Assembly (NCBI GenBank): GCA_964017065.1
Contig: OZ024783.1
Span: forward strand, 6,490,093-6,554,092
Source of the DNA: Haliclona indistincta
Lineage: Eukaryota; Porifera; Demospongiae; Haplosclerida; Chalinidae
DNA length: 64,000 bases
Reading direction: 5' to 3'
The notes beneath the pieces are model-generated. The model did not search any database and was not told where the DNA came from. It saw nothing but the letters and a program-made list of their open reading frames with translations. The position numbers and the translations under genes were made by a program. How positions within the stretch are numbered: position 1 is the first letter of the stretch; each line of letters opens with the position of its first letter. Shown piece by piece: positions 18,398 to 45,210 of the stretch.

Positions 18398-21300
18398 TTA
18401 TATTTTTATGTTATTATTTTGGTTGTCTACAATAGCTATGAGTGGTTCTCTTTCATTGTCAGCACCAATGTCAGGAATGCGTACTTCTTGGACTGGAACT
18501 TGTGGATGAGGTACATGTAGGTCAGCATTTTGTGGCTGATGAATATTTTGTTCTCTCTTTCTTCCACAACCTCTTACACAGTCATAGATGCCACATTTGA
18601 TTAACAGTAAGCAAATGAGTGACAGTAAAAATTGATGAATAAAATTGATAAGATAAAGGATTATTGATTTTGTTGTACAAAAGAGCAATGAGAAAATTGA
18701 GATCAACTAAGAGTAGTGTATCAGTGATATTGAGTAACTTACTTTTGTATGGTTTGATCAGAAATTGAGCACACAACAAAATGAAAAATATAGTTTGAGT
18801 ATAAAGCAGAGAATCTGGTAAACCTTGTATGCCAACGATGGCTATCCATACTACAAAGTAGACTCCAGAGTACCAGCGATACTTGTCCTTGTAGCAAGAC
18901 TGAAACTCATCAAGAAATGGCTTGATTATGAACAGATTGATCACACGGTGTAGGAAAGGAGCTGATAGCAGTATGATCACTAATGGTAGAATCACCACCA
19001 GCAACACTAAGAGAGCAGGAATAGCTAATGGAAGGTGTTGTGGTGAAAAGTAGGTGATATCAGGTTGAATCGATACCATGTACATTGAATAGTGTTGAGT
19101 CTCAAGCACAGTAGGTGTCAGAATATTAATGCTAATATCAGCTAGAGACCAAAATGATAGCATCATCAGAATGCACATTGCTTTCAGCGGTGAAGCCAAC
19201 CAACGAGATGCATTACATTGTTCTAAAACATTTTGCGGTAGTACTCTCATGCGTATTTTCCCACAAATTGAACATTTTGGATGCCAACGAGCAATAGCAG
19301 TGATGCCCAGTAGAACCAAGAGCACTGTAAGAGGACCAAGTACATGAAAGAAATAGTTGTACAGCTTTGGAATGGATACAAAGAAACACCACGGTATCCT
19401 ACCGAACAGCTCAAGATTGAGCAAAGCTACTGAAGTAATGATGGACACAGCTGTACTCAAAGTGGAGTATTCTGAATAGTCATCAAGTGGTATGTGATTG
19501 ACCACTGCCAGGAATAACATTGGACCATAAAGAAAGCCACATCCAAGACTGTGCTTGAACCTGACTACCAAGACCAGAGATATTGTGATCAGTATCTGAA
19601 ACAAAATTGCAAAAAATAAGATTGCAATAGGTTTTGATGACGTACAGTTTTCTTCAGGAATGCAGTGAATTGAAAGAAACGAAAACACAAAATGCTCAGC
19701 ACATGTTCTACAGAGGACACCTCCTCTTCCTTTTGAGCACTGTGTCCCATTTAGCAAAAAGTAGTTGTTGCCACTCTGTATTCCAGAAGGACAAGGTGCA
19801 TTGTTCACCTTGCACTCAGAATACTTGCATCGAGCGACAATGTATTCATTGTGTACTTGTCCATACCAGTATCCATGTGACACACAAACAGCTCCCAATA
19901 CTGTTGAACACAATGTGTGTTTAGTTCCAATAGCACATGGACATGCATTTAGCATCAAATCGTACTGAAAGCCTACTGGGCAATTGGTAATGTTGAGAGC
20001 TATATTAATTCCAACTTCTGTGTTTGAATTTTTGCACGATAAGTACAGTGAAATGTTTTGATCGCCAGTCTGATTAGGAGACTGAAACCTTAAATTTGTA
20101 TCAATGATAGATGAGCTTGTGTTGGGAGGTTGAACTAGCACAACGTTATCTGGTCCGAGAAGTTTAATGTTTTTTATGAAAAGGTCGTATCGGCAATTAT
20201 ATGATGTGCCATTGCAGAGTATAGTAACATCAGCATTACAAAATGAAGGTTTACGATAGTAATCAGTGATTGAGATGTTGAGTAAGATATTCTGACCTGG
20301 GAAGATACTCAGGTAGTTGTTCTCATTCAGATTCAGTACAATGATATTTGATGCTGCTGATGCAATATCAATCTTGTTTAAATTTCTAGAGCATTCACTT
20401 AGAAACATGTATAGATCAGACGAAAATGATTGAATATATACAGCATCACCTAGAATCACAGCTCTGTTGTCATTAAACTCTAGTATTGTTTGACACACAC
20501 CTAAACTTGATTTCTGAAGGTTATCTACATACAAAGCTCCACCATAACGAGCAAAGTTATTTTTGAATTTTATTGTTGACTGACAGGAAATATTAATTGT
20601 TATGCTGTACAGTGACATGGCTCCTCCACGACCTGGTGCATTATTTGCAACAAATTCAAGATTACCCATAATGCACAAATCAACATTTGATTGATCATTT
20701 TCAAAAGCAAGAGAAGTTCCCAGATTTTTTCGAAAGATTGAATCTCGTATAGTAGACCGATTGGCATTTTTTATATGGACAATGACATTTTCAAGACTTT
20801 CAATGTCGTCTTTCTCATGTATATAAAGATCAGTATTGTTCTCTACTCTTAGTAATGCCAAATTCACCTGATCTTCAGCGAAGTGTTCACTGCTGATTAA
20901 CACCAACCCTGAAGTGCCAATATTGTTCAAAAGAGTTAATGCAGTTATATTAATCATGTTGTAGTTCAAGTTGTCTCTGTTTCCAATTACTGCTTGCACT
21001 AAGCGAGTATTTGTATTGTTCTCAAATATATTTTGAATGAAAAAAAATTAAATGGTGATGCAAAGTCACATTTACTAGTTTTTAGAAATGAATTGATGCT
21101 CACAAGAATTCCAGGTGGTTGCTTTTCAGTTAATATAAAGTTGTTGTTATAAAACACATTTTCTTGCATGATACACCAGGTACAAGGATCACCTATAAGA
21201 GCTTTGTACTCGATAGAAATTTCCATAAATATAAAACACATTGTATTATCAACAAATTTATTTCTTTGAATTAAAATTCCAGCTGGAGAACCAACTACTG

Positions 21301-22144
21301 AAATTGCTGATGTAGAAGAACTGGTGCATGATTTCAAATTTACAAACAAATTGTTCATAATTAGTATAGAGGAATTTTTTAACATAATCAATCTTGAATG
21401 TGATATGTTTCGTACGAAGTTCACTATTGAGTTAAGTGAGTGATGTTGACAATTTTCAAAGGTGTTATTTTCTATTTTGACAGTCACGGGATTTGGAGGA
21501 GGTGAAAGAATGAAGAATGTAAAGTCCATAGAAAGATTCACAGTGGGACAATAAGCACTGTTACCAAACACATTGTTAGTAAGTAACGTAGCTATTGCGA
21601 ACTCAAAATCCAATGAGACTGATTCAAGCTTGCAATCAATAACTTCAAGAAAATACATTCTCGACATCTTGATATACGGCATTTGATCATCAATGCCATA
21701 TTGACTGACCCAAGCAAATCCTAGCCCTTTCCATGACCAATAAAGAAAAATATCCCTCAGGCTTACACTGTTCACAGTTGGTGATACTCGAATAAAAGAT
21801 CTAGAATTTTCAAAGTTTATAAAGGCATTGTTGCACCCAACTACACCAACTTTTATTATGGATCTAACAGGTGGGAAAGTGAACTCGAGGACATTTTGAA
21901 TGGTTTGATTGTATGTTACATTGATAACGATTTGAGACATATCAGATGAATAAAAATCACTGTTGCTCATCTTGCTTAGCACATAATATGCTAGCGTTTT
22001 ACAAGCATTTTTCTCCTGTAGTACGCATGAAGAGTTATCTTGACCCGACTCACTCACTTGAATATTTATCCGGTCACAGATAATGACTGTCACAGCAAAT
22101 ACCAGAACCAGTAGAGCTGAATGTGAAAATAATTTAGTTTCCAT
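18398..22144 (-). pseudogene. beta-helix/Cys-rich/multi-pass surface protein, two frame breaks
   Basis: This is the first member of the array. From ATG 22144 the frame runs through a signal peptide (METKLFSHSALLVLVFAVTV..), the CKTLAYYVL motif and half of the repeat ectodomain. A run of eight A at 21040-21047 lacks one base relative to the expected frame. The frame then continues through the second ectodomain half, the Cys-rich module (CKYSECKVNNAPCPSG.., GRGGVLCRTCAEHF) and the membrane segments. Near 18630-18660 a deletion relative to the paralogues removes most of the last helix and shifts frame, so the main frame ends early (..VNQMWHL, stop near 18582). The usual PVQEVRIPD...EREPLIAIV tail remains readable in another frame down to 18398. 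It may be a young pseudogene, or one break may be an assembly error in the homopolymer. Confidence 0.8.
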
Positions 22145-22150
22145 GATCAA

Positions 22151-22671
22151 GGCTCAACTGTGATGAGATGAAACTGCAAACTTCACACTAATACACACGT
22201 TCAACTAACTGTTTAACTTTCTTTGCAACAGTATTTATTACCGACGGTGTTGTTTTCTAAAAATGTCAAAAATGTGGTTATGACTTAAAAGAAACTAACA
22301 TAGCTACAAGTTTCAACAACACTGCATTCACACTTGAATAAGTTACAAACAAGTGAGTAAACCTGTTTTGCAAACGTCTGAAGATTCTATGTAACTCTCT
22401 AGAACTTCATGCGAATTGTGTTTAATGGGAATACATTATTATTCATGCTACGTAGAAACTTGCTAGCATGCATGCATGCACGCAGTCTTGATGTAACTGA
22501 TCCATGAAAAAAAATTATTCATTATTATGGCTAAATTTACATGAACACAGACTGTTGTGCTATTCGTATAATTAAAGACACACATGTCACTACAAAACGA
22601 ATGATATTGATGCAACGCTACAGTTTGATAACTAATCAAGTACAAATCGTGAGTAATGAATTGTGGTTAAG
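22151..22671. other. intergenic spacer of the array
   Basis: Non-coding. The left segmental duplicate carries the same sequence at about 10546-11028. It should contain the promoter of the gene at 18398-22144 (minus strand); I see no convincing TATA box. Confidence 0.5.
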
Positions 22672-25600
22672 TTATTGATTTTGAACAATAGCAATAAGTG
22701 GTTCTCTTTCATTATTAGTGCTGAAATCAGGAAAGCGAACTTCTTGAACAGGTACTTGTGGACGAGATATTTGCTCAACATCTTGTGGCTGCTGCAATTC
22801 ATGGTCTCTCTGTTTTCTGCACAAAACGCCTTTCACACTGTTGTACAAGCTATATGTGACCCATAGTAGAGCACATACAAATGGTACAATGATCAATGCA
22901 TGAATAAGAACAGGCAGAATCGTGTAAGATGATGTAGTTATGCTCATTTTGTTGTACAGGAGAGCAATAAGAAAATTGAGATCAACTAAGAGTAGTGTAT
23001 CAGTGATATTGAGTAACTTACCTCTGTATGGTTTGAATAAAATCTGTATGCACAGCAAAATGAAAAATATAGTTTGAGTGTAAAGCAGAGAATCTGGTAA
23101 GCCTTGAATGCCAACGATGGCAATCCATACTACGAAGTACACTCCAGAGTACCAGCGATACTTGTCCTTGTAGCAAGACTGAAACTCATCAAGAAATGGC
23201 TTGATTTTGACGAGATTGATCACACGTTGTAGGAAAGGAGCTGATAGCAGTATGATCACTAATGGTAGAATCACCACCAGCAACACTAAGAGAGCAGGAA
23301 TAGCTAATGGAAGGTGTTGTGGTGAAAAGAAGGTGATATCAGGTTGAATTGATACCATGTACATTGAATAGTGTTGAGTCTCAAGCACAGTAGGTGTTAG
23401 AATATTGATGCTAATATCAGCTAGAGACCAAAATGATAGCATCATCAGAATGCACATTGCTTTCAGAGGCGATATATTGACTCGAAAATTAGAAGTGTGC
23501 CTAGCCCTTTGAGGTCGTACTCGCATGCGAATTTTCTCAAAGAGTGAACATTTTGGATGCCAACGAGAAAGAGCAGTAATGCCTAGTAGAACCACGAGCA
23601 CTGTAAGAGGACCAAGCATACGAAGAGAATAGTTGTACAGCTTTGGAATGGATTCAAAGAAACACCACGGTATCCTACCGAACAGCTCAAGATTGAGCAA
23701 AGCTACTGAAGTAATGATGGACACGATCCTACTCAAAGTGGAGTATTCTGAATAGTCATCAAGTGGTATGTGATTGACCACTGCCAGGAACAACATTGGA
23801 CCATAAAGAAAGCCACATCCAAGATGGTGCTTGAATCTGACCAAAAAGACGAGAAACACAGTGATCAGAATCTGAAACAAAATTGCAGAAAAGATTAGAG
23901 CAATGGCTTTAGACAAACTGCAGATCTCCTCAGAGATGCATTCAATTGAGAGAAAGGAAAACACAAAATGCTCAGCACATGTTCTACAGAGTATCCCACC
24001 TCTTCCACTTGAACACTGTGTTCCACTTAGTAAGAAGTATTTGTTACCACTCTGCATTCCAAGAGGACAAGGCTTGTTTCTAATCTTACAAGCAGAATAC
24101 TTGCATCGAGCTACTGTGTATTCATTGTGTACTTGTCCATACCAGTATCCACGTGACACACAAACAGCTCCCAATACTGTTGAACATAATGTGTGTTTAG
24201 TTTCAACAGCACATTTACATGCATTTAACATTGAGTCATATATAAAACCTTGTGGGCAACTGCGAATATTGAGCAAAAATGTAATGTTAGCATTTGAATT
24301 TTTGCAAGATAGATGCAGTGAAATGTTTTGAAAGTTGGTATTTATTGGAGACTGAATCCTCAAATTTGTGTCAATGATAGATGAGCCTGTGCTGGACTGT
24401 TGAACCAACACAACAGTATCTGGCCCATAAAGTTTGATGTTTTTGATAAAAAGATTATATCGGCATTTGTATATCGTGCCATTGCAGAATATAGCAATAT
24501 CAGCTGTGCACAATGAAGGCATGCCATAGTAGTCAGTGATTGAGATGTTGAGTAAGATATTCTGACCAGGAAAGATACTAAGGTAGTTGTTGTCTTTGAG
24601 GTTCAGTACAACGATATTAGCTGCAGCAGATGCAACTTCAGTTTTGGACAGATATCTAGAGCATTCACGAAGTATCATTTCGAGATCAGATGAATATGAT
24701 TGAACATATATGGCATCACCTGAAATCGCAGCCCTGTTGGCAATAAACTCTAGAGTTGTATTACACACACCTAAGCCAGATTTTAGGATATTATCTACAT
24801 ACAAGGCTCCGCCATATCGACCAAAGTTATCTTTAAAGGTTATTGTTGACTGACATGAAGTATTTATTCTTACATTGTACAGCGACATTGCTCCTCCATA
24901 TATGGCGTTATTTTGTTGAAATTGAAGATCACCAATAACACACAAAACAAGATGTGTACCATATAAGTTATCATTTTTAAAAACAAGAGGAGTTCCCAAA
25001 TTTGTTCGAAAAGTTGAATCTCGTATGATCGATTGGTTGACATTTTTCACAAGAACAATAAGACTTTGGGCAATGTCATTCTCATACTTATACCAAACAA
25101 TATTATTTTCTATTCTCAAGAAAGCCAAATTTATCAAAATATTTTGATACAGTAATCCATTGTGTTCGATCATTACCAACCATGATGTGCCAACATTGTT
25201 CAAAAGAGTTAATCCAGTTATATTAACAGTACTAGTATTGTACACATTGTTCTCGGTTCCAACTTTCATACTCAATAAATGGACATGAGTATTGTTTTCA
25301 AATATATTTTGATAGAAAGAAAGTTCCATTGGGCATATACTAGTGATAATCTCCGCACTTATTTCTACAAGAATTGGCTCTAGTGCAGTTGGTGGAAAAT
25401 GATTATTAAGAAAGCTATTCTTTTTTATAATGCACCAGGTACAAGAACTTCCAATCAATGCTTTGTAGTCTACAGTAGTATCTATGGCTATCAAACTCAC
25501 TGCATTACCAATAAATTGATTATTTTGTATTAGAATACTTAGCGGAACACCGATGATTGAAATAGCTGATGTATTAAATAACCTTTCGGCTTTTAAATTC

Positions 25601-26319
25601 AGGAATGAATTTTTCACAATTTTTACGGCACGGTTATGCATTTGAATATGAAGTAAAAAATTATGATGAACCAATTGGCAATTTTCAAAAGTGTTATTCT
25701 CTGCTATTGCAAGATAGTAGACTTCAGTAAGAGAAACACAAGGACAGATAGCGCTGTTACCGAAAACGTTATTTTTGATGATGAATGATAGCATTTTACC
25801 AGAGAAGGAAACTGAAATAAAAGTGCAATTCAAGACTAGTACTTCAGCGATTGCGTACATCGAGATTTGTGGAATATATTTTACTGTGAATTGACCAACC
25901 CAGGCAAATCCTAACCCAATCCATGACCAAGAAATGGAATGATCATAGATTAGTTGTGATATTTGAATTGAAGATCCCGCTTTTTCAAAGTTGATGAAGG
26001 CATTATTGAACCCAACCACACTTACGCTATATATGTATCGAAAATGCAAAGTGATCTCAAGCGTTTTCTGAGTAATGGTTTGGTTGTACATTACATTGAT
26101 GACCAATTGGGAAATCAGACCTGAATCGTAAGATGTTTTCATCTGGTTTAACACGTAAGCCAGTGTTTTACAAGTATGAGGCTCCCTAAGCCCACATTGT
26201 GGCTCATCATGAACAGATCCATGATCACTCACTTGAATAGTTAACTTTCGTGATCCCAAAACACAGCCAATGATCAGCAGAAGTAGAGATAAGTACCAAA
26301 GGAATCGAATTGATGCCAT
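22672..26319 (-). CDS. beta-helix/Cys-rich/multi-pass surface protein (intact, copy B)
   Basis: Single-exon ORF of 1,215 residues. Residues 1-22 (MASIRFLWYLSLLLLIIGCV..) form a signal peptide. About 25-685 is an ectodomain opening with a CKTLAYVLNQM motif and continuing as short strands rich in Asn (N-N-x-F, I-x-N-N) with many NxT/S sites, typical of a right-handed beta-helix. About 685-800 is a Cys-rich module (CKCAVETKH, CKYSACKIRNKPCP, GRGGILCRTC). About 805-1150 holds 8-10 hydrophobic segments, with FQSCYKDKYRWYSG near 1050. The cytoplasmic-type tail holds PVQEVRFPD and EREPLIAIV. The membrane half is almost identical in DNA to the other array members; the ectodomain is distinct. Likely a plasma-membrane recognition or adhesion receptor; ligand and signalling route are inference only. 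No named family can be assigned. Confidence 0.85.
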   Translation of the reverse strand: MASIRFLWYLSLLLLIIGCVLGSRKLTIQVSDHGSVHDEPQCGLREPHTCKTLAYVLNQMKTSYDSGLISQLVINVMYNQTITQKTLEITLHFRYIYSVSVVGFNNAFINFEKAGSSIQISQLIYDHSISWSWIGLGFAWVGQFTVKYIPQISMYAIAEVLVLNCTFISVSFSGKMLSFIIKNNVFGNSAICPCVSLTEVYYLAIAENNTFENCQLVHHNFLLHIQMHNRAVKIVKNSFLNLKAERLFNTSAISIIGVPLSILIQNNQFIGNAVSLIAIDTTVDYKALIGSSCTWCIIKKNSFLNNHFPPTALEPILVEISAEIITSICPMELSFYQNIFENNTHVHLLSMKVGTENNVYNTSTVNITGLTLLNNVGTSWLVMIEHNGLLYQNILINLAFLRIENNIVWYKYENDIAQSLIVLVKNVNQSIIRDSTFRTNLGTPLVFKNDNLYGTHLVLCVIGDLQFQQNNAIYGGAMSLYNVRINTSCQSTITFKDNFGRYGGALYVDNILKSGLGVCNTTLEFIANRAAISGDAIYVQSYSSDLEMILRECSRYLSKTEVASAAANIVVLNLKDNNYLSIFPGQNILLNISITDYYGMPSLCTADIAIFCNGTIYKCRYNLFIKNIKLYGPDTVVLVQQSSTGSSIIDTNLRIQSPINTNFQNISLHLSCKNSNANITFLLNIRSCPQGFIYDSMLNACKCAVETKHTLCSTVLGAVCVSRGYWYGQVHNEYTVARCKYSACKIRNKPCPLGMQSGNKYFLLSGTQCSSGRGGILCRTCAEHFVFSFLSIECISEEICSLSKAIALIFSAILFQILITVFLVFLVRFKHHLGCGFLYGPMLFLAVVNHIPLDDYSEYSTLSRIVSIITSVALLNLELFGRIPWCFFESIPKLYNYSLRMLGPLTVLVVLLGITALSRWHPKCSLFEKIRMRVRPQRARHTSNFRVNISPLKAMCILMMLSFWSLADISINILTPTVLETQHYSMYMVSIQPDITFFSPQHLPLAIPALLVLLVVILPLVIILLSAPFLQRVINLVKIKPFLDEFQSCYKDKYRWYSGVYFVVWIAIVGIQGLPDSLLYTQTIFFILLCIQILFKPYRGKLLNITDTLLLVDLNFLIALLYNKMSITTSSYTILPVLIHALIIVPFVCALLWVTYSLYNSVKGVLCRKQRDHELQQPQDVEQISRPQVPVQEVRFPDFSTNNEREPLIAIVQNQ

Positions 26320-26811
26320 CGCGTACTATGGATGTGTCTCCAACTTACAGAATTTAAATAAAAATTAATGATTGAAACTGCAAATCCAGCACAAATGTTT
26401 TCATCATGTAAAAGTACACTGCAGATATTGTTGCAACAGAAAATTTGCTTCCTAATGGGCTGCTGTGTAAATGTTACATTTGATGTAGGAAGTATTATAA
26501 TAATTATTGTAATTTCACTTTCACCTTTCTCACTATCATCTTCCTATTAGTGGAACATCACTGTGACTATTCCGCCTATCCCAAAGACCTTGACTTACTG
26601 AGTATCTGAACTATGAACTGATTTAGATCTTTCCTCTCTATAATATTATAGCTACTCTGTACTAACATCTTACATGTCTAACTGATTCTTGGCTAAAATT
26701 TTCTGAATCGTAATACTGGTTATTATTTAATAACAGGGAAATTTAGATATATTGAGACAATTTTGGTTGTATAAACCTTGTAAATTTGTTTCATGCATGC
26801 ATATAAAAATG
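26320..26811. other. intergenic spacer of the array
   Basis: Non-coding, AT-rich. It contains the 5' flank of copy B and the 3' flank of copy C. No repeat or RNA gene was recognised. Confidence 0.5.
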
Positions 26812-26817
26812 TTTATT
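26812..26817 (-). promoter_or_regulatory. polyadenylation signal of copy C
   Basis: TTTATT on the plus strand (AATAAA on the minus strand) lies 56 bases beyond the stop codon of the gene at 26873-30517. Confidence 0.4.
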
Positions 26818-26872: not shown

Positions 26873-29800
26873 TCAACGATAATCAACAATAGCAATGAGT
26901 GGTTCTCTAAGACCACTGCTGTCATCAGGAACATGTACTTCTTGGACTGGAACTTTTGGATAAGATACATGTTCAACTTCTTGTGGCTGCTGCAGCTCCA
27001 ATTCTCTCTTTCTTCTGCTCAAAAAGCCCTTTATACAGCCGTACACACCATATTTAACAAAAATCAAATAAATAAGGAACAGCACAGCGCATGCAAATGG
27101 TACAATGATCAATGCATGTATAAGAAGTGATGAAAATGTATGTGTGAGCAAGGGTTCATTGATTTTGTTGTACAAAAGAGCAATGAGAAAATTGAGATCA
27201 ACTAAGAGTAGCGTATCAGTGATATTGAGTAACTTACTTTTGTATGGTTTTATCAGAAATTGGGCACACAACAAAATGAAAAATAAGGTTTGGGTGTAAA
27301 GCATAGAATCTGGTAAACCTTGTATGCCAACGATGGCTATCCATACTACAAAGTACACTCCAGAGTACCAGCGATACTTGTCCTTGTAGCAAGACTGAAA
27401 CTCATCAAGAAATGGCTTGATTTTGATGAGATTGATCACACGTTGTAGGAAAGGAGCTGATAGCAGTATGATCACTAATGGTAGAATCACCACCAGCAAC
27501 ACTAAGAGAGCAGGAATTGCTAATGGAAGGTGTTCATTATGTGAAAAGTAGGTGACATCAGGTTGAATCGATACCATGTACATTGAATAGTGTTGAGTGT
27601 CAAGCACAGTAGGTGTTAGAATATTAATGCTAATATCAGCTAGTGACCAAAATGATAGCATCATCAGAATGCAAATTGCTTTTAGCGGTGAAGCCAACCA
27701 ATGAGATGCATGCCAACGTTGGAAAAAATTCTGAGGTAGTTGCAAACGCATTTTCTCAAAAACTGAACACTTTGGATACCAACGAACAAGAGCAGTGATG
27801 CCTAGTAGAACCAAGAGCACTGTAAGAGGACCAAGCACACGAAGAGAGTAGTTGTACAGCTTTGGAATGGATACGAAGAAACACCACGGTATCCTACCGA
27901 ACAACTCAAGATTGAGCAAAGCTACTGAACTAGTGATGGACACAGCTGAACTCAAAGTAGAATATTCTGAATAGTCATCAAGTGGTATGTGATTGACCAT
28001 TGCCAGGAACAACATTGGACCATAAAGAAAGCCACACCCTAGACTGTGCTTGAACCTGACTACAAAGATCAGAGATATTGTGATCAGTATTTGAAACAGA
28101 ATTGCAGAAAGTAAGATTGCAATAGCTTTTGATGAAGTACAGTTTTCTTCAGGAATGCAGTGAATTGAAAGAAATGAAAAGACAAAATGCTCAGCACATG
28201 TTCTACAGAGGACACCTCCTCTTCTTTTTGAGCACTGTGTCCCATTGAGCAAGAAGTAGTTGCTGCCACTCTGTATTCCAGAAGGACAAGGTGCATTGTC
28301 CATCTTGCACTCAGAATACTTGCATCGAGCTATTACGTACTCATTGCTTACTCGTCCATACCAGTATCCATGTGACACACAAGCAGCTCCCAATACAGTT
28401 GAACATACATATAATTTGTGTTTAGTTTTTATAGCACATTTACACACGTTTAAAGTCGAATTGTAGAAAAAACCTTGTGAACAGTTGCCATAAATTTTGA
28501 GGCCGATTTTAATGCTTGCATTTGAATTTTTGCATGCCAAATTCAACGATGTGTCTAGAGCATCATTGTGTTTGTAAGACTGAAGTCTTAAATTTGTGTC
28601 AATGACAGACGATTCTGTGTTTGGAAGTTGAACTAGCACAACACTATCTGGTCCAGATAGCTTGATATCTTGATCAAAGCATGTGTATAATTGTCCCTCA
28701 CAATATAGAGAAACATCAGTAGTACACAAAGAAGGTTGATCAAACTGATCTGTGATTGAGATATTGATTATAATATTCTGACCAGGAAAGATTCTAAGGT
28801 CACCAGAATGCAGAACGATGCTACTTGCAGCAGAGCCGACATCTTTCATGCTAAAATTTTGGCATTCAAACTGGGATGAGGATGCGAAATACACAGAATT
28901 ACCAGCAGTTGTGGCTCTATTGTCCAAAAATTCTAAAGTTGTCAAACACTTGCCTGGGCACACACATAAACTTGGACTATCCTTTAAATATAGAGCTCCT
29001 CCATAGACCGCATAATTCTTTTCAAATAGTATTTTTGACTTGCAGGAGCTGTTGAAGGTTACATTGTACAAAGACATTGCTCCTCCGTAAACTCCAGTGT
29101 TTGCTTTGAATGAAAGATTGCGCATTGCACACAGGTCATTGCGAAATTGTTCGTTTTCAAAAACAAGAGGTGTTCCCAAATTATTTTGAAAAGTTGAATC
29201 ACGTATGATTGACTGGTTGGCATTTTTTACATAAACAATGGTTCTTTCAAGACTTTCACTGTTGTCTTTCTTATATAAACCAATATTTCTTTCTACACTG
29301 AGTGATCCAAGAATAACCGATATGTTGCCTTCGTGTTTTTTTAACGTTACAAGCGGTGATGTGCCGCTATTGTTCAAAACTGCTAAGGAAGTAACTGTTA
29401 CGTATTGCATGTATTTGCTTTTAACTTCAGTGTGCAATAAACGAGTGCTTGTATTGTTCTCAAAAGAATTTTGATGAAGAAGAGTTTTCATCGGACAAGT
29501 GCTATTGACAATATCAACTACAACCTTCACAAGAATTGGTTCTTGTGCAGTTGGTGGGTAATGGTTGTGCTGATATTTGTTCTCTAGCACGCTGCACCAG
29601 GTACAAGGATTTCCAACGAGTGACAATTTGTATACATAAGTATCTATAACTATGAAACTCATTGTATTACCAATGAATTGATTCCCTTGGATTATAATAC
29701 CTGCTGAACCACCCCTGATTGAAATTGCTGGTCTGTAAAGTGAATCTGTTACATTGGAAAATAAATTGTTCGAAATTTCAATGGAGCAGTTTTGCACAAC

Positions 29801-30517: not shown

Positions 30518-30780
30518 TGCAAGCTAGAGGTAGAAAAATAAATAGCTATTTGCATTCATTGTAGCGAATGACTTACCACGCAAAGATGACTTAAGTCAAA
30601 GTTTAAAGTGAAACAGCGAGACAACGGCAACTATAGCTCAATATGATGCTGTTTATCATGTGATATGTGATATCAATAGTCTGTTTTTAACATGTGATAT
30701 TAGTTGTCAAAACTAATCAAAATTTAAAGCAAAATTTAGAACTCTGATCAAAGTTTAGAGTTTTATAAAAGTAAATAAAA

Positions 30781-34497: not shown

Positions 34498-35269
34498 GTT
34501 AGCAAGCTTAACAAATGGCTTTGAATTTTAGCTATTGTTTTAAAAGAAAGCTTTTATAACAACTAGATTTAGTTAGCTACCATACTTGGCATTGTGTGGG
34601 GATTACCTAATCCCAACTTTGACCTATATACCACCATCAGTTTACCTTATTCATGTCAAACAGAAAGACTCATGATCCATATTGAAACAATAATATTATT
34701 GTATAGCATGAACTGACAGTGAACATGTTTTCATTACTATGGATCAGTTCACAAAGAAGGATATGCGCACGTGAATTTTAGTAAAATCCCCAAACAAGGT
34801 AAGTTTCTAAAACATTACATGATCTCAATAGATGTCCTGCACAGAACATAACAGCTTCAAACAGATTCAATTCATATGCTAACAATGCAAGAGACACCAT
34901 AGTTATAGCAAACAATCAACAATTGCATTGACCAATGAGCACATGACTCTCAGTGAGCCTGCTACAGCACATCATCTCTTCCTCAGCTCGTGGAAAACCC
35001 CTTCATACAACCATGCACATGCACCATAACTCATTTGACAGAAAATGAGTTACAGTACACCACGTACGGTAATCAAAGAAGTGACAAAAATGTGTACAGC
35101 TAGAGGTGATTTTTGAAAATAAACAACTACTGTAACTGCACTAAAAGCTGATGTCCATAATGAATTTCTTGTTAACATAAAACTACATAACCTAGCTACA
35201 CTGATGTATGAAGTGAAGCATGCATGCATGGGTGGAAAGAGAAGTAAATAGCTTTTCAACCATTGTTTT
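34498..35269. other. intergenic spacer, partly duplicated at 39794-40190
   Basis: No gene. Blocks such as CAAACAGAAAGACTCATGAT and CCCCAAACAAGGTAA recur upstream of copy E in the same order, marking the shared promoter region of copies D and E. Confidence 0.6.
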
Positions 35270-35745
35270 AACTCAACAATAGCAATGAGTGATTCTCTTT
35301 CAGAATTACCACCAACGGTCAAAAACATGCACTTCTTGAACTAGAACTTGTGGATAAGATACATCTTCTGGATACTGCATGCAGTGCTTCCTCTCTCTTT
35401 CTTCTGCATCAAAAGCCTTTCACAAAGTCATACACAGCAGAAAACAAGCAAATAAGAAGCATTACAGCACATAAAAATGATGCTGTGATCAGCCCACGGT
35501 GCATGAATAAGAAGTGATGAATTGATAAAGGATTGTCAATATTTTATAGTACAAAAGAGCAATAAGAAAATCGAGATCAACTAAGAGTAGTGTAGCAGTG
35601 ATATTGAGTAACTTACTTCTGTATGGCTTGATCAGAAATTAAGTACACAAAATATAGTTTGAGTGTAAAGTAGAGAATCTGGTAAACATTGTATGCCAAC
35701 GATGACCATCCATACTACAAAGTACACTCCAGCGATACATACTTC
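35270..35745 (-). pseudogene. C-terminal relic of an array gene
   Basis: The minus strand retains the tail (CAATAGCAATGAGTGATTCT region, EREPLI-like end changed to SERESLIAIV), the last helix and the IPY/SKLLNITDTLLLVD region, with many small deletions up to the WYSG region near 35730. The rest of the gene is missing. It lies between copies D and E and shows that another full unit once stood here. Confidence 0.8.
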
Positions 35746-36064: not shown

Positions 36065-39000
36065 TTATTGATTGTCAACAATAGCAATGAGTGGTTCTCT
36101 TTCAGTACTACCACTGACATCAGGAACACGCACTTCTTGAACCGGAACTTCAGGATGAGACAATTCAAACACACGTCGAGCATCTTGTGGCTGCTGCAAC
36201 TCCTGTCCTCTCTTTCTTTTGTTCCACAATCCCTTTACACTGTCATACATGCCACATTTGATCAAAAGCAAGGAAATAAGTGACAGAATAGCACATACAA
36301 ATGGTACAATGATCAATGCATGAATAAGAAGTGATGAAAACTTGCGAGATGATAAAGGATCGTTGATTTTGTTGTACAAAAGAGCAATAAGAAAATTGAG
36401 ATCAACTAAGAGAAGTGTATCAGTGATATTGAGTAACTTACTTTTGTATGGTCTGATCAGAAATTGAGTACACAACAAAATGAAAAATATAGTTTGAGTG
36501 TAAAGCAGAGAATCTGGTAAACCTTGTATACCAACGATGGCTATCCATACTACAAAGTACACTCCAGAGTACCAACGATACTTGTCCTTGTAGCAAGACT
36601 GAAACTCATCAAGAAATGGCTTGATTTTGAACAGATTGATCACACGTTGTAGGAAAGGAGCTGATAGCAGTATGATCACTAATGGTAGAATCACCACCAG
36701 CAACACTAAGAGAGCAGGAATAGCTAATGGAAGGTGTTGTGGTGAAAAAAAGGTAATATCAGGTTGAATCGATACCATGTACATTGAATAGTGTTGAGTC
36801 TCAAGCACAGTAGGTGTTAGAATATTAATGCTAATATCAGCTAGTGACCAAAATGATAGCATCATCAGAATACATATTGCTTTCAGTGGAGAGGCCAGCC
36901 AACTTTGTAAAACACTGAGAGGAGATAATTGCAAGTAAGTTGTTCTAAAACGAGATGCATGCCAACATTGTAAAACTCGTTGAGGTAGTACTCGCATGCA
37001 TATTTTCTCAAAAAATGAACACTTTGGATGCCAACGAGCAAGAGCAGTGATGCCTAGTAGAACCAAGAGCACTGTAAGAGGACCAAGTACACGAAGTGAA
37101 TAGTTGTACATCTTTGGAATAGATACGAAGAAACACCACGGTATCCTACCGAATAGCTCAAGATTGAGCAAAGCTACTGAAGTAATGATGGACACAACTG
37201 TACTCAAAGTGGAGTATTCTGAATAGTCGTCAAGTGGTACGTGATTGACCACTGCCAGGAACAACATTGGTCCATAAAGAAAGCCACACCCAAGACTGTG
37301 CTTGAACCTGACTACCAAGACCAGAGATATTGTGATCAGTATCTGAAACAAAATTGCAAAAAATAATATTGCAACAGCTTTCGATGTACTACACTTTTCG
37401 TCGGTAATGCAGTGAATTGCAAGAAATGAAAACACAAAATTCTCTGCACATGTTCTACAGAGCACACCTCCTCTTCCATATGAGCACTGTGTTCCATTTA
37501 ACAAGAAGCGATTGTTATCACTCTGCATTCCAGGAGGGCAAGGTGCATTGTTCATCTTGCACTCAGAATACTTGCATCGAGTGACTATGTATTCATTGTG
37601 TACTTTTCCATACCAGTATCCATGTGACACACAAACAGCTCCCAGTACAGTTGAACATATTGTGTGTTTAGCTTCTATAGCACATTTGCACACATTTAAC
37701 TTTTTGTTGAATGAAAATCCTTGTGGACAGCTGCTAATATTGAGAGTGATGTCAATTTTTGCTATTGAATTTTTGCAAAATAGACGTAGCAAGACATTTT
37801 GAGAGTCATTGTTATTTGGTGACTTAAGGACTAAATTTGTGTCAACGACTGATGAGCTTGTGTTCGGAGGTTGAACCAGTACAACACTATCTGGTCCTGA
37901 TAGTTTGATATGTTGATCAAAGCAAGTGTAAATCTGTCCATCACAAGAGATAAAAACACCAGCGGTACAAAGAGAAGTTTGGTTGAAGTAGTCAGTTATT
38001 GATATGTTGACTTTAATATTCTGACCAGGAAAAATGCTTAAGCAGCAACTATCTTGAGAATGTAAAGTAATGCTACTTGCAGCAGAGCCGACGTCTTCCA
38101 TGCTGAAATTTTGGCATTTGAACTTTAAATTCGATGAAGATGCAAAATACACAGAATTTCCTGAAGTTGTAGCTCTATTATCATTAAACTTTAAGTTCGT
38201 AAGACACAGGTTCGGGCACAAACAGAGACTTGAACTGTTTTCTAAATATAGAGCTCCACCATAGATACCATAATTATTTTGAAATGAAATGATTGACTGG
38301 CATGAGCTATTGATGGTCACACTGTACAAAGACATTGCTCCTCCATATATTCCACTGTTTGCCTCAAACAATAGATTGCCCATAGCACACAGATCGAGAC
38401 CTTCATCATACATTTGTTCGTTTTCAAATACGAGTGAAGTTCCAAGATTTTTTCGAAAGGTCAAATTGCTAATAGTTGAATGTTGAGCATTTTTTACATA
38501 AAAAATAGTTGATTCAAGACTTTCAGTGCGGGCATCTTCTCTATACTGACCAGTATTGTTTTCTACTGAAAGTGATACCAGATGAACGAAAGTTTCTCCA
38601 TGAAGAGGGTCAGTGTTCATGATTGTAATAAGCCCTGATGGGCCATCATTATTCGTAACTGCAAATGAAGAGACTCTTATAACGTTGCTGGATTTGCTTC
38701 TAATTTCAGTGTTCAATAGACTTGTGTTGGTATTGTTATCAAATGAGTTATGACTGAGAGAAGTTTCCATTGCAGGACATCCACTGATGGTGAAAATACT
38801 TGCTTGTATTCTCATAAGAATTGGCTGTTGTTTTTTATTTGTTAGTAAGCAGTTGTTTTTGAAATTGTTCTTCTGTACAATGCACCATGTACAAGCATTT
38901 TCTATTAATGCACTGTTTGATACAGTAGCATCTATTGCTATCAAATTCACTGCATTACCAATGAATTGATTGTTCTGTATTAAGATACCTGCTGTATCAC

Positions 39001-39793
39001 CGTTGATGGAAATTGCCGAAGCTGTTAACGTTGCAGACTCATTGAGTTTTAAATTAACAAAAGAATTGTTTAGAACTGTTATGGAATGGTTCTGCACTTG
39101 TATGTCTAGTACAGAACTCCATACATGACAATTTTCAAAAGAATTGTTTGCTATCATTGTATAAAAAGCATCAGTAATTTTCACAACAGAACAAAGAGCA
39201 CTGTTACCAAAGACATTATCACTGATAAGAATCCCTGAGCCTAGCCCTTGAGTAAACATAGACTGTAAAGAAACTGAAATAAAATTACAATTACGAACTG
39301 CAAAGTCATATAACAACACTTTGATTTGCGGGATTTCAAATTCATTGTTCACTGGTATGGGTTGATTAGCGAACACGAATCCCAATCCTATCCATGACAA
39401 ACGTAGGGCATCACCAGGAAATTGTGTTATTTGAATTGAAGATCGAGCATGTTGAAAGATGATATAGACATTGTTGCCTCCAACTATGCTTATTTCATGT
39501 ATGTAGTCAAATTGAATTAAAGTAACTTGAAGTTTCTTTTGAGCAATTGTTTGATTATATGTAACGTTGATGAACACATCTGAAGTCTCAAGCGATAGGA
39601 AGGTACTTGTGTTCATGTTGTTCAACACATATTCCAGAGTTTTACAAGCGTGGGACCTGTGACTGATGCATGGAATGCTATCACGACCTAACTCGCTTAC
39701 TTGAATGGTCACTTGAGATTCACAGCCAAAGATCTGCATTGCAATTACTAGCACAAATAGAGCAGAGCACAAAGAGAATTGGGTCGCTGCCAT
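36065..39793 (-). CDS. beta-helix/Cys-rich/multi-pass surface protein (intact, copy E)
   Basis: Single-exon gene; ATG chosen at 39793 (MAATQFSLCSALFVLVIAMQ..) because it matches copy D, while the longer open frame would need a non-ATG start. The product is 1,242 residues. It has a signal peptide, ACKTLEYVLNNMNT opener, repeat ectodomain to about 690, Cys-rich module (CKYSECKMNNAPCPPG, GRGGVLCRTCAENF), multi-pass region with the extra RTTYLQLSPLSVLQ loop, FQSCYKDKYRWYSG, and a tail with PVQEVRVPD and EREPLIAIVDNQ. It is the closest relative of copy D in ectodomain and flanks. A glycosylated plasma-membrane protein is expected; a role in recognition or adhesion is inference. Confidence 0.85.
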   Translation of the reverse strand: MAATQFSLCSALFVLVIAMQIFGCESQVTIQVSELGRDSIPCISHRSHACKTLEYVLNNMNTSTFLSLETSDVFINVTYNQTIAQKKLQVTLIQFDYIHEISIVGGNNVYIIFQHARSSIQITQFPGDALRLSWIGLGFVFANQPIPVNNEFEIPQIKVLLYDFAVRNCNFISVSLQSMFTQGLGSGILISDNVFGNSALCSVVKITDAFYTMIANNSFENCHVWSSVLDIQVQNHSITVLNNSFVNLKLNESATLTASAISINGDTAGILIQNNQFIGNAVNLIAIDATVSNSALIENACTWCIVQKNNFKNNCLLTNKKQQPILMRIQASIFTISGCPAMETSLSHNSFDNNTNTSLLNTEIRSKSSNVIRVSSFAVTNNDGPSGLITIMNTDPLHGETFVHLVSLSVENNTGQYREDARTESLESTIFYVKNAQHSTISNLTFRKNLGTSLVFENEQMYDEGLDLCAMGNLLFEANSGIYGGAMSLYSVTINSSCQSIISFQNNYGIYGGALYLENSSSLCLCPNLCLTNLKFNDNRATTSGNSVYFASSSNLKFKCQNFSMEDVGSAASSITLHSQDSCCLSIFPGQNIKVNISITDYFNQTSLCTAGVFISCDGQIYTCFDQHIKLSGPDSVVLVQPPNTSSSVVDTNLVLKSPNNNDSQNVLLRLFCKNSIAKIDITLNISSCPQGFSFNKKLNVCKCAIEAKHTICSTVLGAVCVSHGYWYGKVHNEYIVTRCKYSECKMNNAPCPPGMQSDNNRFLLNGTQCSYGRGGVLCRTCAENFVFSFLAIHCITDEKCSTSKAVAILFFAILFQILITISLVLVVRFKHSLGCGFLYGPMLFLAVVNHVPLDDYSEYSTLSTVVSIITSVALLNLELFGRIPWCFFVSIPKMYNYSLRVLGPLTVLLVLLGITALARWHPKCSFFEKICMRVLPQRVLQCWHASRFRTTYLQLSPLSVLQSWLASPLKAICILMMLSFWSLADISINILTPTVLETQHYSMYMVSIQPDITFFSPQHLPLAIPALLVLLVVILPLVIILLSAPFLQRVINLFKIKPFLDEFQSCYKDKYRWYSGVYFVVWIAIVGIQGLPDSLLYTQTIFFILLCTQFLIRPYKSKLLNITDTLLLVDLNFLIALLYNKINDPLSSRKFSSLLIHALIIVPFVCAILSLISLLLIKCGMYDSVKGLWNKRKRGQELQQPQDARRVFELSHPEVPVQEVRVPDVSGSTEREPLIAIVDNQ

Positions 39794-40300
39794 GTTAGCA
39801 AGCTTAAGGACAAATGGCTTTGAAGTCAAAAGTGACACAATTTTAGCTATTGTCTATTTAAAAGAAAGCTATCATAACAAATTTAGTGTTCATGTATTAT
39901 AGTCAGCATACACTATAGATTTGGCATTGTGTGGGTATTACCAAATCCCATATACACATGCACCACTATTAGTTGCTTACCTTATTCATGTCAAACAGAA
40001 AGACTCATGATCCATATCGAAACAATAATATTTTGTATAACATGGAACATGTTTTCATTATTATGGATCAGTTCACAAAGAAAGATATTATAACAGTTTA
40101 AATGTGCACGTGCAGTTTCAGTAAAATCCCCAAACAAGGTAAATTTCAAAGACACTACTTGATCTCAATAGATGTCATGCACAACAATCATGAATGGATT
40201 CATACAGATTTGAAGAGTTTCATTCATATGCTGCTAACAATGTAAGAGAGCAAACAATCAACAGTTGAAGTGAAAATTGAGTTCGTGACTCAGTGAGTGA
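39794..40300. other. intergenic spacer, duplicate of 34498-34900
   Basis: No gene. It is collinear with the 5' flank of copy D and probably contains the promoter of copy E. Confidence 0.6.
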
Positions 40301-40304
40301 TGAA

Positions 40305-40612
40305 AGAAATTGTCACTGTCACTCAAAACTGTCACTTCCACTGTCATTCATCACCATTACTTTCACCGTCATTCATCACCGTTACTTCCACTGTCGTTCA
40401 TCACCGTCACTTCAACTGTCATTTATCACTGTCACTTCCACTGTCATTCATCACCGTTACTTTCACTGTCATTCATCACCGTTACTTTCACTGTCATTCA
40501 TCACCGTTACTTTCACTGTCACTGATCACTGTAGCAGATCATTGTCACTATTAAAGTCATTGTCACTGCATGGTCACTGTCAGTGAGTGACTGTGATCAG
40601 TGACAGTGACTT
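40305..40612. repeat. 25-bp minisatellite with inverted tail
   Basis: About ten units of period 25, built on CACTGTCATTCATCACCG plus TTACTTT, run to about 40530. They are followed at 40575-40612 by the complementary words CAGTGAGTGACTGTGATCAG, which can pair with the array. All three plus-strand frames stay open only because 25 is not a multiple of three; no protein is implied. Confidence 0.85.
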
Positions 40613-41039
40613 TAACAGATAGTGACCAGTGACCTTCATTGCTATCCTACATGTACATCCTTTTGACTTCGTTAGGTATAATTTTACATGTGTATTGCAA
40701 TTTTTTATCGTCAAGAAAAGTTTGTTTCTCAAGAAACCTACTTAATTATAATTATCATTGCCGATCAGCAATGATATGTAGGGATGATGACGGCAAATTA
40801 AGATGGCGGTTACCGATGTGTGAAAAATAAGTTTTTGATAAATTATTACAATTGGGTCAAAAATTGCTTCTAAAATCCATTAGAGGTAGTTGATCTTAAG
40901 ATGAGTGTAAAACAATTAATTAATCAAAGTTCTTGCAACTGATATGAGCCATATTTATTTCATGTGTACACTTGACACACACTATTGTCAAACAGTATGA
41001 TACAGATATTAGTTAAATTTTTAACACAGTATTTGCTAC
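40613..41039. other. 3' spacer of copy F
   Basis: Non-coding and homologous to 35746-36064. No RNA gene or element was recognised. Confidence 0.55.
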
Positions 41040-44000
41040 TCATTGATTATCAACAATAGCAATGAGTGGTTCTCTTTCAGCATTAAAACTGATGTCAGGA
41101 ACACGCACTTCTTGGACTGGAACTTCAGGATGAGATAGTTCAAACACACGTTGAGGACCTTGTGGCTGCTGCAGCTCCTGTCCTCTCTTTCTTTTGTTCC
41201 AAAATCCCTTTACACTGTCATACACACCGCATTTGATCAAAAGCAAGGAAAGGAGTGACAGTATGGCACATACAAATGGTACAATGATCAATGCATGAAT
41301 TAAAAGTAATGAAAACTTATGGAAAGATAAAGGATTGTCGATATTTTTATACAAAAGAGCAATAAGAAAATTGAGATCAACTAAGAGTAGTGTATCAGTG
41401 ATATTGAGTAACTTACTTTTGTATGGCTTGATCAGGAATTGAGCACACAACAAAATGAAAAATATAGTTTGAGTGTAAAGCAGAGAATCTGGTAAACCTT
41501 GTATGCCAACGATGGCTATCCATACTACAAAGTACACTCCAGAGTACCAGCGATACTTGTCCTTGTAGCAAGACTGAAACTCATCAAGAAATGGCTTGAT
41601 TTTGAACAGATTGATCACACGTTGTAGGAAAGGAGCTGATAGCAGTATGATCACTAATGGTAGAATCACCACCAGCAACACTAAGAGAGCAGGAATAGCT
41701 AATGGAAGGTGTTGTGGTGAAAAGAAGGTGATATCAGGTTGAATTGATACCATGTACATTGAATAGTGTTGAGTCTCAAGCACAGTAGGTGTTAGAATAT
41801 TAATGCTAATATCAGCTAGAGACCAAAATGATAGCATCATCAGAATGCACATTGCTTTTAGCGGTGAACTCTGTAAAATACTGAGAGGAGAAAATCGCAA
41901 ATAATTGGTCTTAAAATGAGATGCATGCCAACGTTGTGAAAGTCTTTGTGGTAAACGTATTTTCTCAAAGAGTGAACATTTTGGATGCCAACGAGCAAGA
42001 GCAGTAATGCCTAGTAGAACCAAGAGCACTGTAAGAGGACCAAGCACACGAAGTGAATAGTTGTACAGTTTTGGAAAGGATTCAAAGAAACACCACGGTA
42101 TCCTACCGAATAGCTCTAGATTGAGCAAAGCTACTGAAGTAATGATGGACACGGCTGTACTCAAAGCAGAATATTCTGAATAGTCATCAAGTGGTATGTG
42201 ATTGACCACTGCCAGGAATAACATTGGACCATAAAGAAAGCCACACCCTAGACTGTGCTTGAACCTGACTACCAAGACCAGAAATAGTGTGATCAAAATC
42301 TGAAACAAAATTGCAGAAAATAAGATTGCAACAGCTTTTGATGAAGTACAGTTGTCTTCAGGAATGCAGTGAATTGAAAGAAATGAAAACACAAAATCCT
42401 CTGCACATGTTCTACAGAGCACGCCTCCTCTTCCATTTGAACACTGTGTTCCATTTAGCAAGAAGTAATTGTTATCACTCTGCATTCCAGGAGGACAAGG
42501 TGCATCAGGCTTGCACTCAGAATACTTGCATCGAGCGACTATGTTCTCATCATGGACTATGCCATACCAGTATCCATGTGACACACAATGTCTTTTCAGT
42601 CTTCGTAGCACATTTGCACATATTCAACTTTGAATCATAAGTGAAACCTAATGGACAGCTGCTTATATTGAGGATGATTGTAATGTTAGCATTTGAATTA
42701 CTACATGACAGACGCAGCGAAATGTTTCGAGAATTGTTGTTATTTGGTGTCTGAAGGACTAAATTTGTATCGATGACTGAAGATCTAGTGTTAGGGGATT
42801 GAACCAGTACAACTCTATCTGGCCCTGATAGTTTGATATGTTGATCAAAGCATGTGTAAATCTGTCCATCACAAGAGATAGAAACACCAGCAGTACAAAG
42901 AGATGATTGATTGAAGTGATCAGTTATTGATACGTTCACTATGATATTCTGACCAGGAAATATGTTGAGGCAGCAGCTATCAGGAGAATGCAGAACGATG
43001 CTACTTGCAGCTGAGCCAATGCCTTTCATTTTAAGATTTTTGCATTCGAAATTGAAATCAGTTGAAGATGCGAAATACACAGAATTGCCTGAAGTTGTGG
43101 CTCTATTGTCATAAAAATTTGTTGAACACATCCCTGGGCACACACATAAACCAGAACTGTTTTCTAAGTACAAAGCTCCACCATAGACACCATAGTTATT
43201 TTCAAATGAAACATTTGAATGACATGAGACGTCAATGTTTACACTGTACAATGACATCGCTCCTCCATATATGCCACTGTTAGCATCAAATTGAAGATTT
43301 CCCATTACACACAAATCAAGGCCTTTGCTTTGAATTTGTTCATTTTCTAGCACAAGTGAAGTTCCCAAATTTTTTTGAAAAAATGAACCATCAATTGTCA
43401 TTCGTTGTACATTTTTCACATAAACAATGGCTGCTTCGAGACTTTCACTAGTACCTTCTCTATACTGACCAGTATTGTATTTTACTGTAAGTGATGTCAT
43501 ATTGACCAAAATGTTTCCTTGAAGAGGGCTATTGTTTATGATAGCTACAAGCCCTGATGTGCCGGTATCATTTAAAACTGTTAGCGCAGTGATGTTTTGA
43601 ATGATCTCGAATTTGCTCTTGCTTTCAATTTCAGTGCTCAATAGGCGAGTGTTTGTATTGTTCTCAAATGAGTTGTGAATGAAAAAAGACTCCATCTGAT
43701 ATACTGCAATAGTAGCCTTTACACTCACAAGAATTGGGTCTGGCTTCTCAGTGAGTTCAAAGCAATTGTTTTGAAAATTATTGTTTTCAATATCATACAA
43801 GGTGCAAACATCTCCTATTAGTGCACATTTTGATGCTATGACATCTATTGCTATTGAACTCATTGTATTACCAATAAATCGATTGTTTTGAATTGAAATA
43901 CCTGCTGTAGCACCAATGATGGAAATTGCAGACGAAGAAATCTTGGCATTTAAATTGGTAAAAGAATTGTTCAAAATTTGAATGGAGTTGTTTGTTGCTT

Positions 44001-44692
44001 GAATACGTAGTAACTGACTTTCATAAACGCGACAATTTTCGAAACTATTATTTGCTACTAAAGCAGGATTAGTCAGGACGAGATCCACTATAGGACAAAA
44101 GGCACTGTTGCCGAAAAGATTTTGACTGATGACAACGCTTGGGCCTTCAGCAGTGTGCTGAATAGAATACAAAGAAACTGACATAAAATTACACTTGAAA
44201 ACTTCAAGGGTTGAGCCACATCATCCTGATTTGCGGAATATTGGATTCGTTGCGTACTTTGGATTGATCAGCAAATGTAAAACCTAACCCAATCCATGAC
44301 CATTGAAGAGCAAAATCAGAGAGCTGTGAAATATTCAGTGAAGACTCAGCGTATTCGAAATTGATGAAGGCAGCATTGCACCCAACCACACGAACTTTTA
44401 GAAAGTATTGAAAATGCAAATTGACTTCAAGCGACTTTTGAGTAATAGTTTGGTTGTATGTTACATTGATGAACAGTTCTGCGGATGTCTCGAATGGATT
44501 GACAATACTGTTGTTCATCTGGTTCAACACATATACCAGTGTTTTACAAGCATGCTGAGGCTCTTGAAGGCATGAAAGCTTATCATGACCTGATTCACTC
44601 ACTTGGAAAATGATCGATTGAGAATCACAGCCAATGGTCAACACAATCAGAAGAAACAGAGTTGAATGCAAGAGAAACCGGATTGCTGCCAT
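41040..44692 (-). pseudogene. beta-helix/Cys-rich/multi-pass surface protein, frameshifted (copy F)
   Basis: From ATG 44692 the frame gives a signal peptide (MAAIRFLLHSTLFLLIVLTI..), ACKTLVYVLNQMNN and the first ectodomain strands, then a single-base shift near 44200-44205 ends it (..RMMWLNP). The second frame covers the rest of the ectodomain and enters the Cys-rich module, where a 26-base deletion near 42590 relative to the paralogues (between short TTGTGT/TTGTGTG repeats) shifts frame again. The third frame encodes the rest of the module, all membrane helices and an intact PVQEVRVPD...EREPLIAIVDNQ tail. The membrane half is as well preserved as in intact copies, so inactivation is recent or the copy still donates sequence by conversion. 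It is grouped with copies D and E by the extra membrane-loop sequence. Confidence 0.85.
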
Positions 44693-44929
44693 CACGTATT
44701 GTGAAGTGTACCGAGACTACAACTTGAATCAAAGTGAAACTGCAAACACTTATGATGACATTATTGTTTTATCATGTGATTGCAAAGTATAGTAATAGTA
44801 GATTTTATCATACATAAAACAAAAACATTATGTTTAGCCCACACAATATAAACAATAAAAATCTCAAACCAAGCCGAACAGGCTAATCTGTGCTAGCTAT
44901 AGAATACTATATACATGGGCTGGAACTTG

Positions 44930-45210
44930 AGAACCGTATATATATGCTCAGCATCTTGTGGCTGAAGCAGTTCAAGATCTCCCGTTTTTCTGCTTAAAAA
45001 GCCTTTCACACTGTCATACACAAATAAGAATTATTAAAACAGATACAAATGGTATACTGATCAATGTATGAATAATAAATAATGAAAATGTATGGCATGC
45101 TGAGATGATTGGGGATCATTGATTTTGTTACACAAAAGAGCAACTGGTGTTAAAAAATTGATCGATCAACTAAGAGTAGTGTATCAGTGATCGATATGGA
45201 TAGTGACTGA
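44930..45210 (-). pseudogene. C-terminal relic at the edge of the array
   Basis: The minus strand shows remains of the tail (PVQ region, LQQ-type stretch), last helix and the LLVD region, with small deletions. It ends the array; beyond it begins the ACTR10 gene on the other strand. Confidence 0.7.

What the first reader, a model, noticed from the sequence alone, without database searches (positions are those of the whole stretch)
18398..45210. Tandem array of a giant single-exon beta-helix/Cys-rich/multi-pass receptor family
Six near full-length copies (four intact) and at least four relics lie in about 38 kb; all are on the minus strand. Each product joins a secreted-type, N-glycan-rich repeat ectodomain to a Cys-rich neck, 8-10 membrane segments and a short tail. 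Seen: ORFs, motifs, copy relations. Inferred: a birth-and-death family of surface recognition receptors (allorecognition, symbiont or microbe sensing). I know no named metazoan receptor family with exactly this architecture.
Basis: partly seen in the sequence, partly recalled or inferred. Interest (0 to 1): 0.85.

Follow-up and report, generated by a model that had tools for sequence, protein, structure and literature searches.

The report
Sponge-type variable-head receptor gene array
A stretch of what is likely a sponge genome carries six near-complete tandem copies, four of them intact, of a giant protein whose variable head is predicted to be a beta-helix and whose membrane core has stayed nearly identical between the copies even at silent DNA positions, and it would likely act as a surface receptor that captures material and carries it into the cell.

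The parts
22672..26325 (-). Intact copy A (P0001; first ATG at 26319, stop at 22672-22674): signal-peptide-like start, beta-helix ectodomain, Cys neck, membrane domain, tail
24256..26256 (-). Copy A ectodomain, residues 24-690: predicted right-handed beta-helix plus a membrane-proximal part also rich in strands
   Evidence: POMP repeat above the NCBIfam cut-off in P0001
23917..24258 (-). Copy A Cys-rich neck, residues 690-803 (weakly DUF7630-like in some relatives)
   Evidence: invariant Cys
22846..23916 (-). Copy A membrane domain, residues 804-1160: ten predicted helices, read as nine crossings
23125..23427 (-). Most homogenised block in copy A, about residues 967-1067: mean DNA identity 0.96-0.98 among the six copies
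   Evidence: dS, fourfold sites
22693..22710 (-). Copy A EREPLI tail motif, residues 1206-1211
26873..30523 (-). Intact copy B (P0002; first ATG at 30517); tail reads LREPLI, without the acidic residue at -4
30781..34527 (-). Intact copy C (P0003; first ATG at 34497)
36065..39853 (-). Intact copy D (P0004; first ATG at 39793)
18398..22153 (-). Broken near-full-length copy E: reading frame changes near 21.03 kb and near 18.59 kb
41040..44716 (-). Broken near-full-length copy F: reading frame changes near 44.2 kb and near 42.6 kb
44938..45197 (-). Relic, C-terminal part only
35272..35733 (-). Relic, C-terminal part only, in two frames, between copies C and D
11028..11288 (-). Relic, C-terminal part (about residues 1132-1217 of copy A)
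10325..10537 (-). Relic, N-terminal part; 10327-11289 matches the E/A junction at 21940-22933 at 85% DNA identity
9003..9194 (-). Relic, about residues 580-651 of copy A
7117..7716 (-). Relic, about residues 650-822 plus the last 25 residues of copy A

Best explanation
The array encodes a family of giant membrane proteins that likely act as endocytic recognition receptors: the predicted beta-helix head would bind glycan-rich surfaces or particles, and the EREPLI motif of the predicted cytosolic tail would hand the bound receptor to clathrin adaptors for delivery to endosomes and lysosomes. Shown here: the ORFs, the copy relations, variability that falls from the membrane-distal head to the membrane core, the tail island, and the near-identity of the membrane core at silent sites. 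Predicted: the beta-helix and helix-bundle folds. Inferred: nine crossings with the head outside and the tail in the cytosol; that gene conversion or unequal exchange keeps the membrane core constant while heads diverge, so that each duplication is a new head on a common uptake machine; that the ligand is a glycan or microbial surface; and that the host is a sponge.
Against: No ligand, expression or localisation data. Copy B lacks the acidic residue at -4 of the motif, and none of the 46 readable tails that search 3 added has REPL, so endocytic sorting is not a property of the whole superfamily. Head variability is not concentrated in loops over strands (entropy 1.23 against 1.11, P 0.12), so no binding face is indicated. 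No dN/dS clearly above 1: one C-D block gave 1.37 on 195 codons, but C-D residues 25-400 together gave dN 0.110 and dS 0.123. Homogenisation is graded: outside residues 960-1060 the membrane domain has dS 0.25-0.66 in the non-C-D pairs. Mean K+R overlaps between loops assigned inside (0.9-5.4) and outside (0.1-1.8). Many beta-helix matches are not receptors; a shared fold shows no function.
Confidence: 0.4

Rival explanations
1. Self/non-self (allorecognition) receptors: the variable heads would bind heads or ligands on neighbouring cells of the same species, and tandem variation would make individuals differ, as the Tetrahymena MTA/MTB mating-type array does with a variable segment, a furin-like Cys-rich region and a shared membrane domain.
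For: Same layout of variable head, Cys-rich stretch and shared multi-pass part in a tandem array as MTA/MTB (PMC3608545, abstract and passages); relics and mosaic copies; close counterparts elsewhere differ by 8-13% in the head (P0004/P0011 92%, P0002/P0014 87% identical).
Against: No population data; P0011 and P0014 may be alleles or from a sister species. Here the copies are complete ORFs, not incomplete genes joined by DNA rearrangement. Sequence similarity to MTA/MTB was not tested.
Confidence: 0.17
2. Ligand- or force-gated channel: the membrane domain is TRP-like and the beta-helix head would be its extracellular sensor.
For: Best fold match of the membrane domain is a Megaviridae protein labelled 'Transient receptor potential ion channel' (Foldseek E 1.1e-4, probability 1.00, TM-score 0.41 on the query and 0.51 on the target, rmsd 12.4), followed by two uncharacterised Megaviridae proteins.
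Against: Target names are database labels; no ion-channel model appeared in the Pfam scans; no confident PDB match; pore residues were not identified; the conserved sorting motif fits cargo uptake better.
Confidence: 0.18
3. Constant endolysosomal membrane glycoprotein or transporter with no recognition role; head variation is drift.
For: LIMP-II-like tail motif and many N-glycosylation sequons; C-D head dN/dS near 0.9 is compatible with drift as well as with selection.
Against: Heads are only 44-51% identical in five of six window pairs; a tandem array with many relics is unusual for a housekeeping protein (general knowledge).
Confidence: 0.12
4. The constant membrane core reflects strong selection (including on silent sites) rather than gene conversion.
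For: The membrane domain is conserved across distant relatives; GC at third positions of copy A is somewhat higher in residues 956-1060 (0.42) than in the head (0.32); ratios of membrane to head divergence among seven distant pairs vary from 0.12 to 1.20; in C-D silent divergence is not uniformly lower in the head: dS 0.123 (25-400), 0.246 (400-690), 0.217 (membrane).
Against: Fourfold sites 8.5% against 37-39%, significant at P < 0.05 for 14 of 15 pairs, C-D being the exception. C and D, recent duplicates by their heads, are no closer at fourfold sites in the membrane domain (22 of 128, residues 806-1095) than in the head (20 of 206; P 0.06; 14 of 67 and P 0.03 for 806-955, a stretch chosen after seeing the table). 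The split C+D against the rest is 39 of 181 informative sites in residues 25-400 but 2 of 22 in 901-1095. The membrane/head ratio is 0.14-0.21 for five of six window pairs (C-D 0.50) against 0.57-0.60 for two close counterpart pairs.
Confidence: 0.15

Closest known systems
Uncharacterized protein of the sponge Dysidea avara (P0142, 1299 aa) and several hundred unnamed relatives
   Same: By its sequence the same layout: repeat head, Cys-rich neck, multi-pass domain; 24% identical to P0021 over 88% of the neck and membrane region; 594 hits to its own neck and membrane region, 120 of them listed
   Different: Its closest relatives lack the REPLI tail island (0 of 46 readable tails of the 118 new proteins listed)
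Chlamydial polymorphic membrane proteins (Pmp; PF02415, TIGR01376)
   Same: FxxN/GGA-type beta-helical rungs; P0001 passes the POMP_repeat cut-off; Pmp rungs carry exposed loops thought to serve adhesion (PMC10715098 passages)
   Different: No autotransporter barrel; helical membrane domain, Cys neck and tail instead
Tetrahymena MTA/MTB mating-type proteins
   Same: Tandem array, variable segment, furin-like Cys-rich region, membrane domain shared by all copies, recombination in the shared part (PMC3608545, abstract and passages)
   Different: There the germline genes are incomplete and are completed somatically; homology not tested; different lineage
TRP-labelled membrane protein of Megaviridae (A0A5J6VHI1)
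   Same: Predicted fold of the membrane domain
   Different: 12% identity; its model has 416 residues, too few for such a head
LIMP-II (SCARB2)
   Same: ERAPLI sorting signal in a cytosolic tail
   Different: Different fold and number of membrane segments (recalled); the resemblance is of the motif only

Membership tests
Right-handed beta-helix proteins (ectodomain) | Parallel beta-helix fold | tested here: met
Chlamydial Pmp / POMP | POMP repeat above the curated cut-off | tested here: met
   Two of the four intact copies were scanned: P0001 22.6 bits against 15, P0004 9.4 bits, below it
Chlamydial Pmp / POMP | C-terminal autotransporter beta-barrel | tested here: not met
   The C-terminal part is a predicted helix bundle; no autotransporter hit in four copies
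G protein-coupled receptor | Seven-helix bundle | tested here: not met
   Ten helices of 15 or more residues predicted, read as nine crossings
G protein-coupled receptor | GPCR fold match | tested here: inconclusive
   Best GPCR row E 0.55, probability 0.10; low Z
TRP / TRP-like channel | Fold of the membrane domain | tested here: inconclusive
   Megaviridae TRP-labelled protein E 1.1e-4, probability 1.00, rmsd 12.4; no confident PDB match
TRP / TRP-like channel | Pfam ion-channel profile | tested here: not met
   No such family in the scans
Adaptor-sorted endolysosomal cargo | [DE]XXXL[LI] in a cytosolic tail | tested here: met
   3 of 4 intact copies strictly; copy B has LREPLI; the cytosolic side rests on charge counts only
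Adaptor-sorted endolysosomal cargo | Binding to AP-1, AP-2 or AP-3 | not testable with these tools
   Needs a binding assay
Tetrahymena MTA/MTB-type self-recognition system | Incomplete germline genes joined to one membrane exon | tested here: not met
   Four complete single ORFs, each with its own membrane domain
Tetrahymena MTA/MTB-type self-recognition system | Sequence homology of the membrane domain | not tested
   MTA/MTB sequences were not at hand
Ig-superfamily allorecognition receptors (Alr type) | Ig-like domains | tested here: not met
   No Ig family

The most novel reading that the evidence does not exclude
An undescribed animal recognition system built like the ciliate mating-type array: a superfamily, several hundred members strong in sponge-type genomes, in which gene conversion maintains one constant cassette (TRP-like nine-pass domain with a lysosomal sorting tail) while beta-helix heads radiate, giving each individual its own set of endocytic self/microbe detectors.
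Probability: 0.2. Interest if true: 0.88.

Novelty: new variant of a known kind. Interest (0 to 1): 0.64.

Why it matters
How sponges tell self, symbiont and food bacteria apart at the molecular level is largely open (general knowledge). This family has marks expected of such receptors (variable head, constant membrane core, tandem turnover) together with a specific, cheaply testable prediction: that it is internalised and sent to lysosomes through one six-residue motif. It also shows a domain combination, a beta-helix head on a multi-pass domain with a TRP-labelled fold relative, that the family libraries searched here leave unnamed.

Tried and rejected

Variability on strands against loops: no significant difference. 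The 400 bases before the ORFs: mean pairwise identity 0.40-0.52; only C and D are alike there (0.81-0.97). Polyadenylation-like hexamers (AATAAA, ATTAAA) were not found in the spacers behind copies C and D, but behind A, B and F. A claim that C and D are closer at silent sites in the head than in the membrane part was weakened on recount: P 0.03 holds only for a stretch chosen after seeing the table, P 0.06 for the whole membrane domain, and dS does not show it uniformly.

Literature: the listings (terms on sponge, beta-helix, PMP/POMP, allorecognition, intronless, gene conversion) showed no title or abstract start describing this architecture; one search returned no paper; several searches were broad and only the top rows were seen; no preprints and few subscription papers are held. 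Eight papers were seen as passages found by term, none in full: PMC5297682, PMC11525306, PMC3608545, PMC11795689, PMC10715098, PMC12716839, PMC4302439, PMC8242945. In the last three the beta-helix and PMP terms gave no relevant passage.
Full report
Observation. The stop-to-stop ORF list shows four ORFs of 1216-1262 codons on the minus strand between 22.6 and 39.9 kb and two interrupted stretches on either side. Reading them gives proteins with a signal-peptide-like start, an N-glycan-rich head, a Cys-rich stretch at about residues 690-800, a hydrophobic multi-pass region and a tail of some 55 residues. tblastn with copies A and D finds the two broken copies (E 18.4-22.2 kb, F 41.0-44.7 kb) and relic pieces at six places from 7.1 to 45.2 kb.

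Relatives. A search with copy A found 59 proteins at E <= 0.001, three of them from this locus; only the 7985 candidates sharing most words were scored. A search with the neck and membrane region of P0021 found 124, of which 120 were listed. A search with the same region of P0142 found 594, of which 120 were listed. The only organism name given is Dysidea avara, a demosponge, so the window is likely from a sponge; no other evidence on the host was obtained.

Tail. The last helix runs into a tail that is variable except for EREPLI and a few residues around it. In an alignment of 13 close copies (four from the window) the six motif residues have mean entropy 0.07 against 0.73 for the tail before them. 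Over the retrieved sets, REPL[ILMV] occurs in 43 of 50 readable tails of one search (59 proteins), 50 of 68 of one search (81 new proteins) and 0 of 46 of one search (118 new proteins); tails that were missing or shorter than 15 residues by a simple rule were dropped. The form [DE]REPL[IL] is in 36, 44 and 0. Two of the 43 are copies of this locus. ERAPLI of LIMP-II and ERQPLL of tyrosinase bind adaptor subunits (PMC11525306 passages). One intact copy, B, lacks the acidic residue.

Constant core. Mean nucleotide identity among the six copies rises from about 0.6-0.75 in the head to 0.96-0.98 in the membrane core and falls to about 0.4 outside the gene. dS among the five intact pairs other than C-D is 0.64-1.51 in residues 3-690 but 0.06-0.12 in 960-1060; the neck and the rest of the membrane domain are intermediate, 0.25-0.66. 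Fourfold sites, counted in codons whose first two bases agree, differ in 345 of 890 and 386 of 1053 comparisons in the two head regions and 60 of 706 in the core; the contrast is significant for 14 of 15 pairs at P < 0.05, C-D being the exception. The 15 pairs share sequences, so pooled numbers are not independent. Informative sites are more compatible with their neighbours than after shuffling (0 of 500 permutations). The grouping C+D, the commonest split in residues 25-400 (39 of 181 sites), is 2 of 22 in 901-1095. C and D are no closer at silent sites in the membrane domain than in the head, with P between 0.03 and 0.06 for the reverse by the stretch chosen within it. Ratios of membrane to head divergence are 0.14-0.21 for five of six window pairs and 0.50 for C-D, against 0.57-0.60 for two close counterpart pairs; seven distant pairs range from 0.12 to 1.20, so this last measure is weak. 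Gene conversion or unequal exchange is the simplest account; selection on silent sites is not excluded.

Mechanism. The likeliest function is an uptake receptor: a variable head to bind, a common stem and membrane part, and a sorting signal to bring cargo to lysosomes. The ligand is inferred from the fold only. The best 'works like' parallels are LIMP-II for trafficking and the Tetrahymena mating-type array for genetics (PMC3608545 passages). Membership in neither is claimed.

Novelty. No paper in the listings seen describes this architecture. Tandem, diversifying receptor arrays are a known kind; this architecture and the split between a homogenised core and diverging heads make it a new variant. 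Interest is put at 0.64, since the family is large, unnamed and directly testable, while its function is unproven. On checking, the odds of the selection rival were raised from 0.13 to 0.15, because the C-D comparison was weaker than first written.

Noticed in passing
window 2035-7193 and 13917-18495: A segmental duplication beside the array, pieces 87-93% identical in DNA, each half with a short-chain dehydrogenase exon and an open IgGFc_binding ORF (Pfam E 2e-44 and 1e-44).
   Followed up: partly
window 7711-7997: A 287-base stretch that matches its own reverse complement at 95% lies at the edge of a relic copy, like a foldback element.
   Followed up: no
window 40314-40529: A 25-base minisatellite of 8.6 copies in the spacer between copies D and F; it could promote unequal exchange.
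   Followed up: no
window 52794-61016: Dense interspersed and tandem repeats, among them 136 bases x 4.8 at 60378-61016; the few ORFs tested there had no Pfam match.
   Followed up: no
window 49505-49677: A 33-base repeat of 5.2 copies inside the minus-strand ORF 49027-49698, which had no Pfam match.
   Followed up: no
relatives P0142 and P0147-P0264: A second branch, found with P0142, has no REPLI tail island in its 46 readable tails, and its proteins reach 2243 residues.
   Followed up: partly
membrane domain model of copy A (residues 680-1217): Three giant-virus proteins share its predicted fold with probability 1.00, which suggests that the domain also exists in protists or their viruses.
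   Followed up: no
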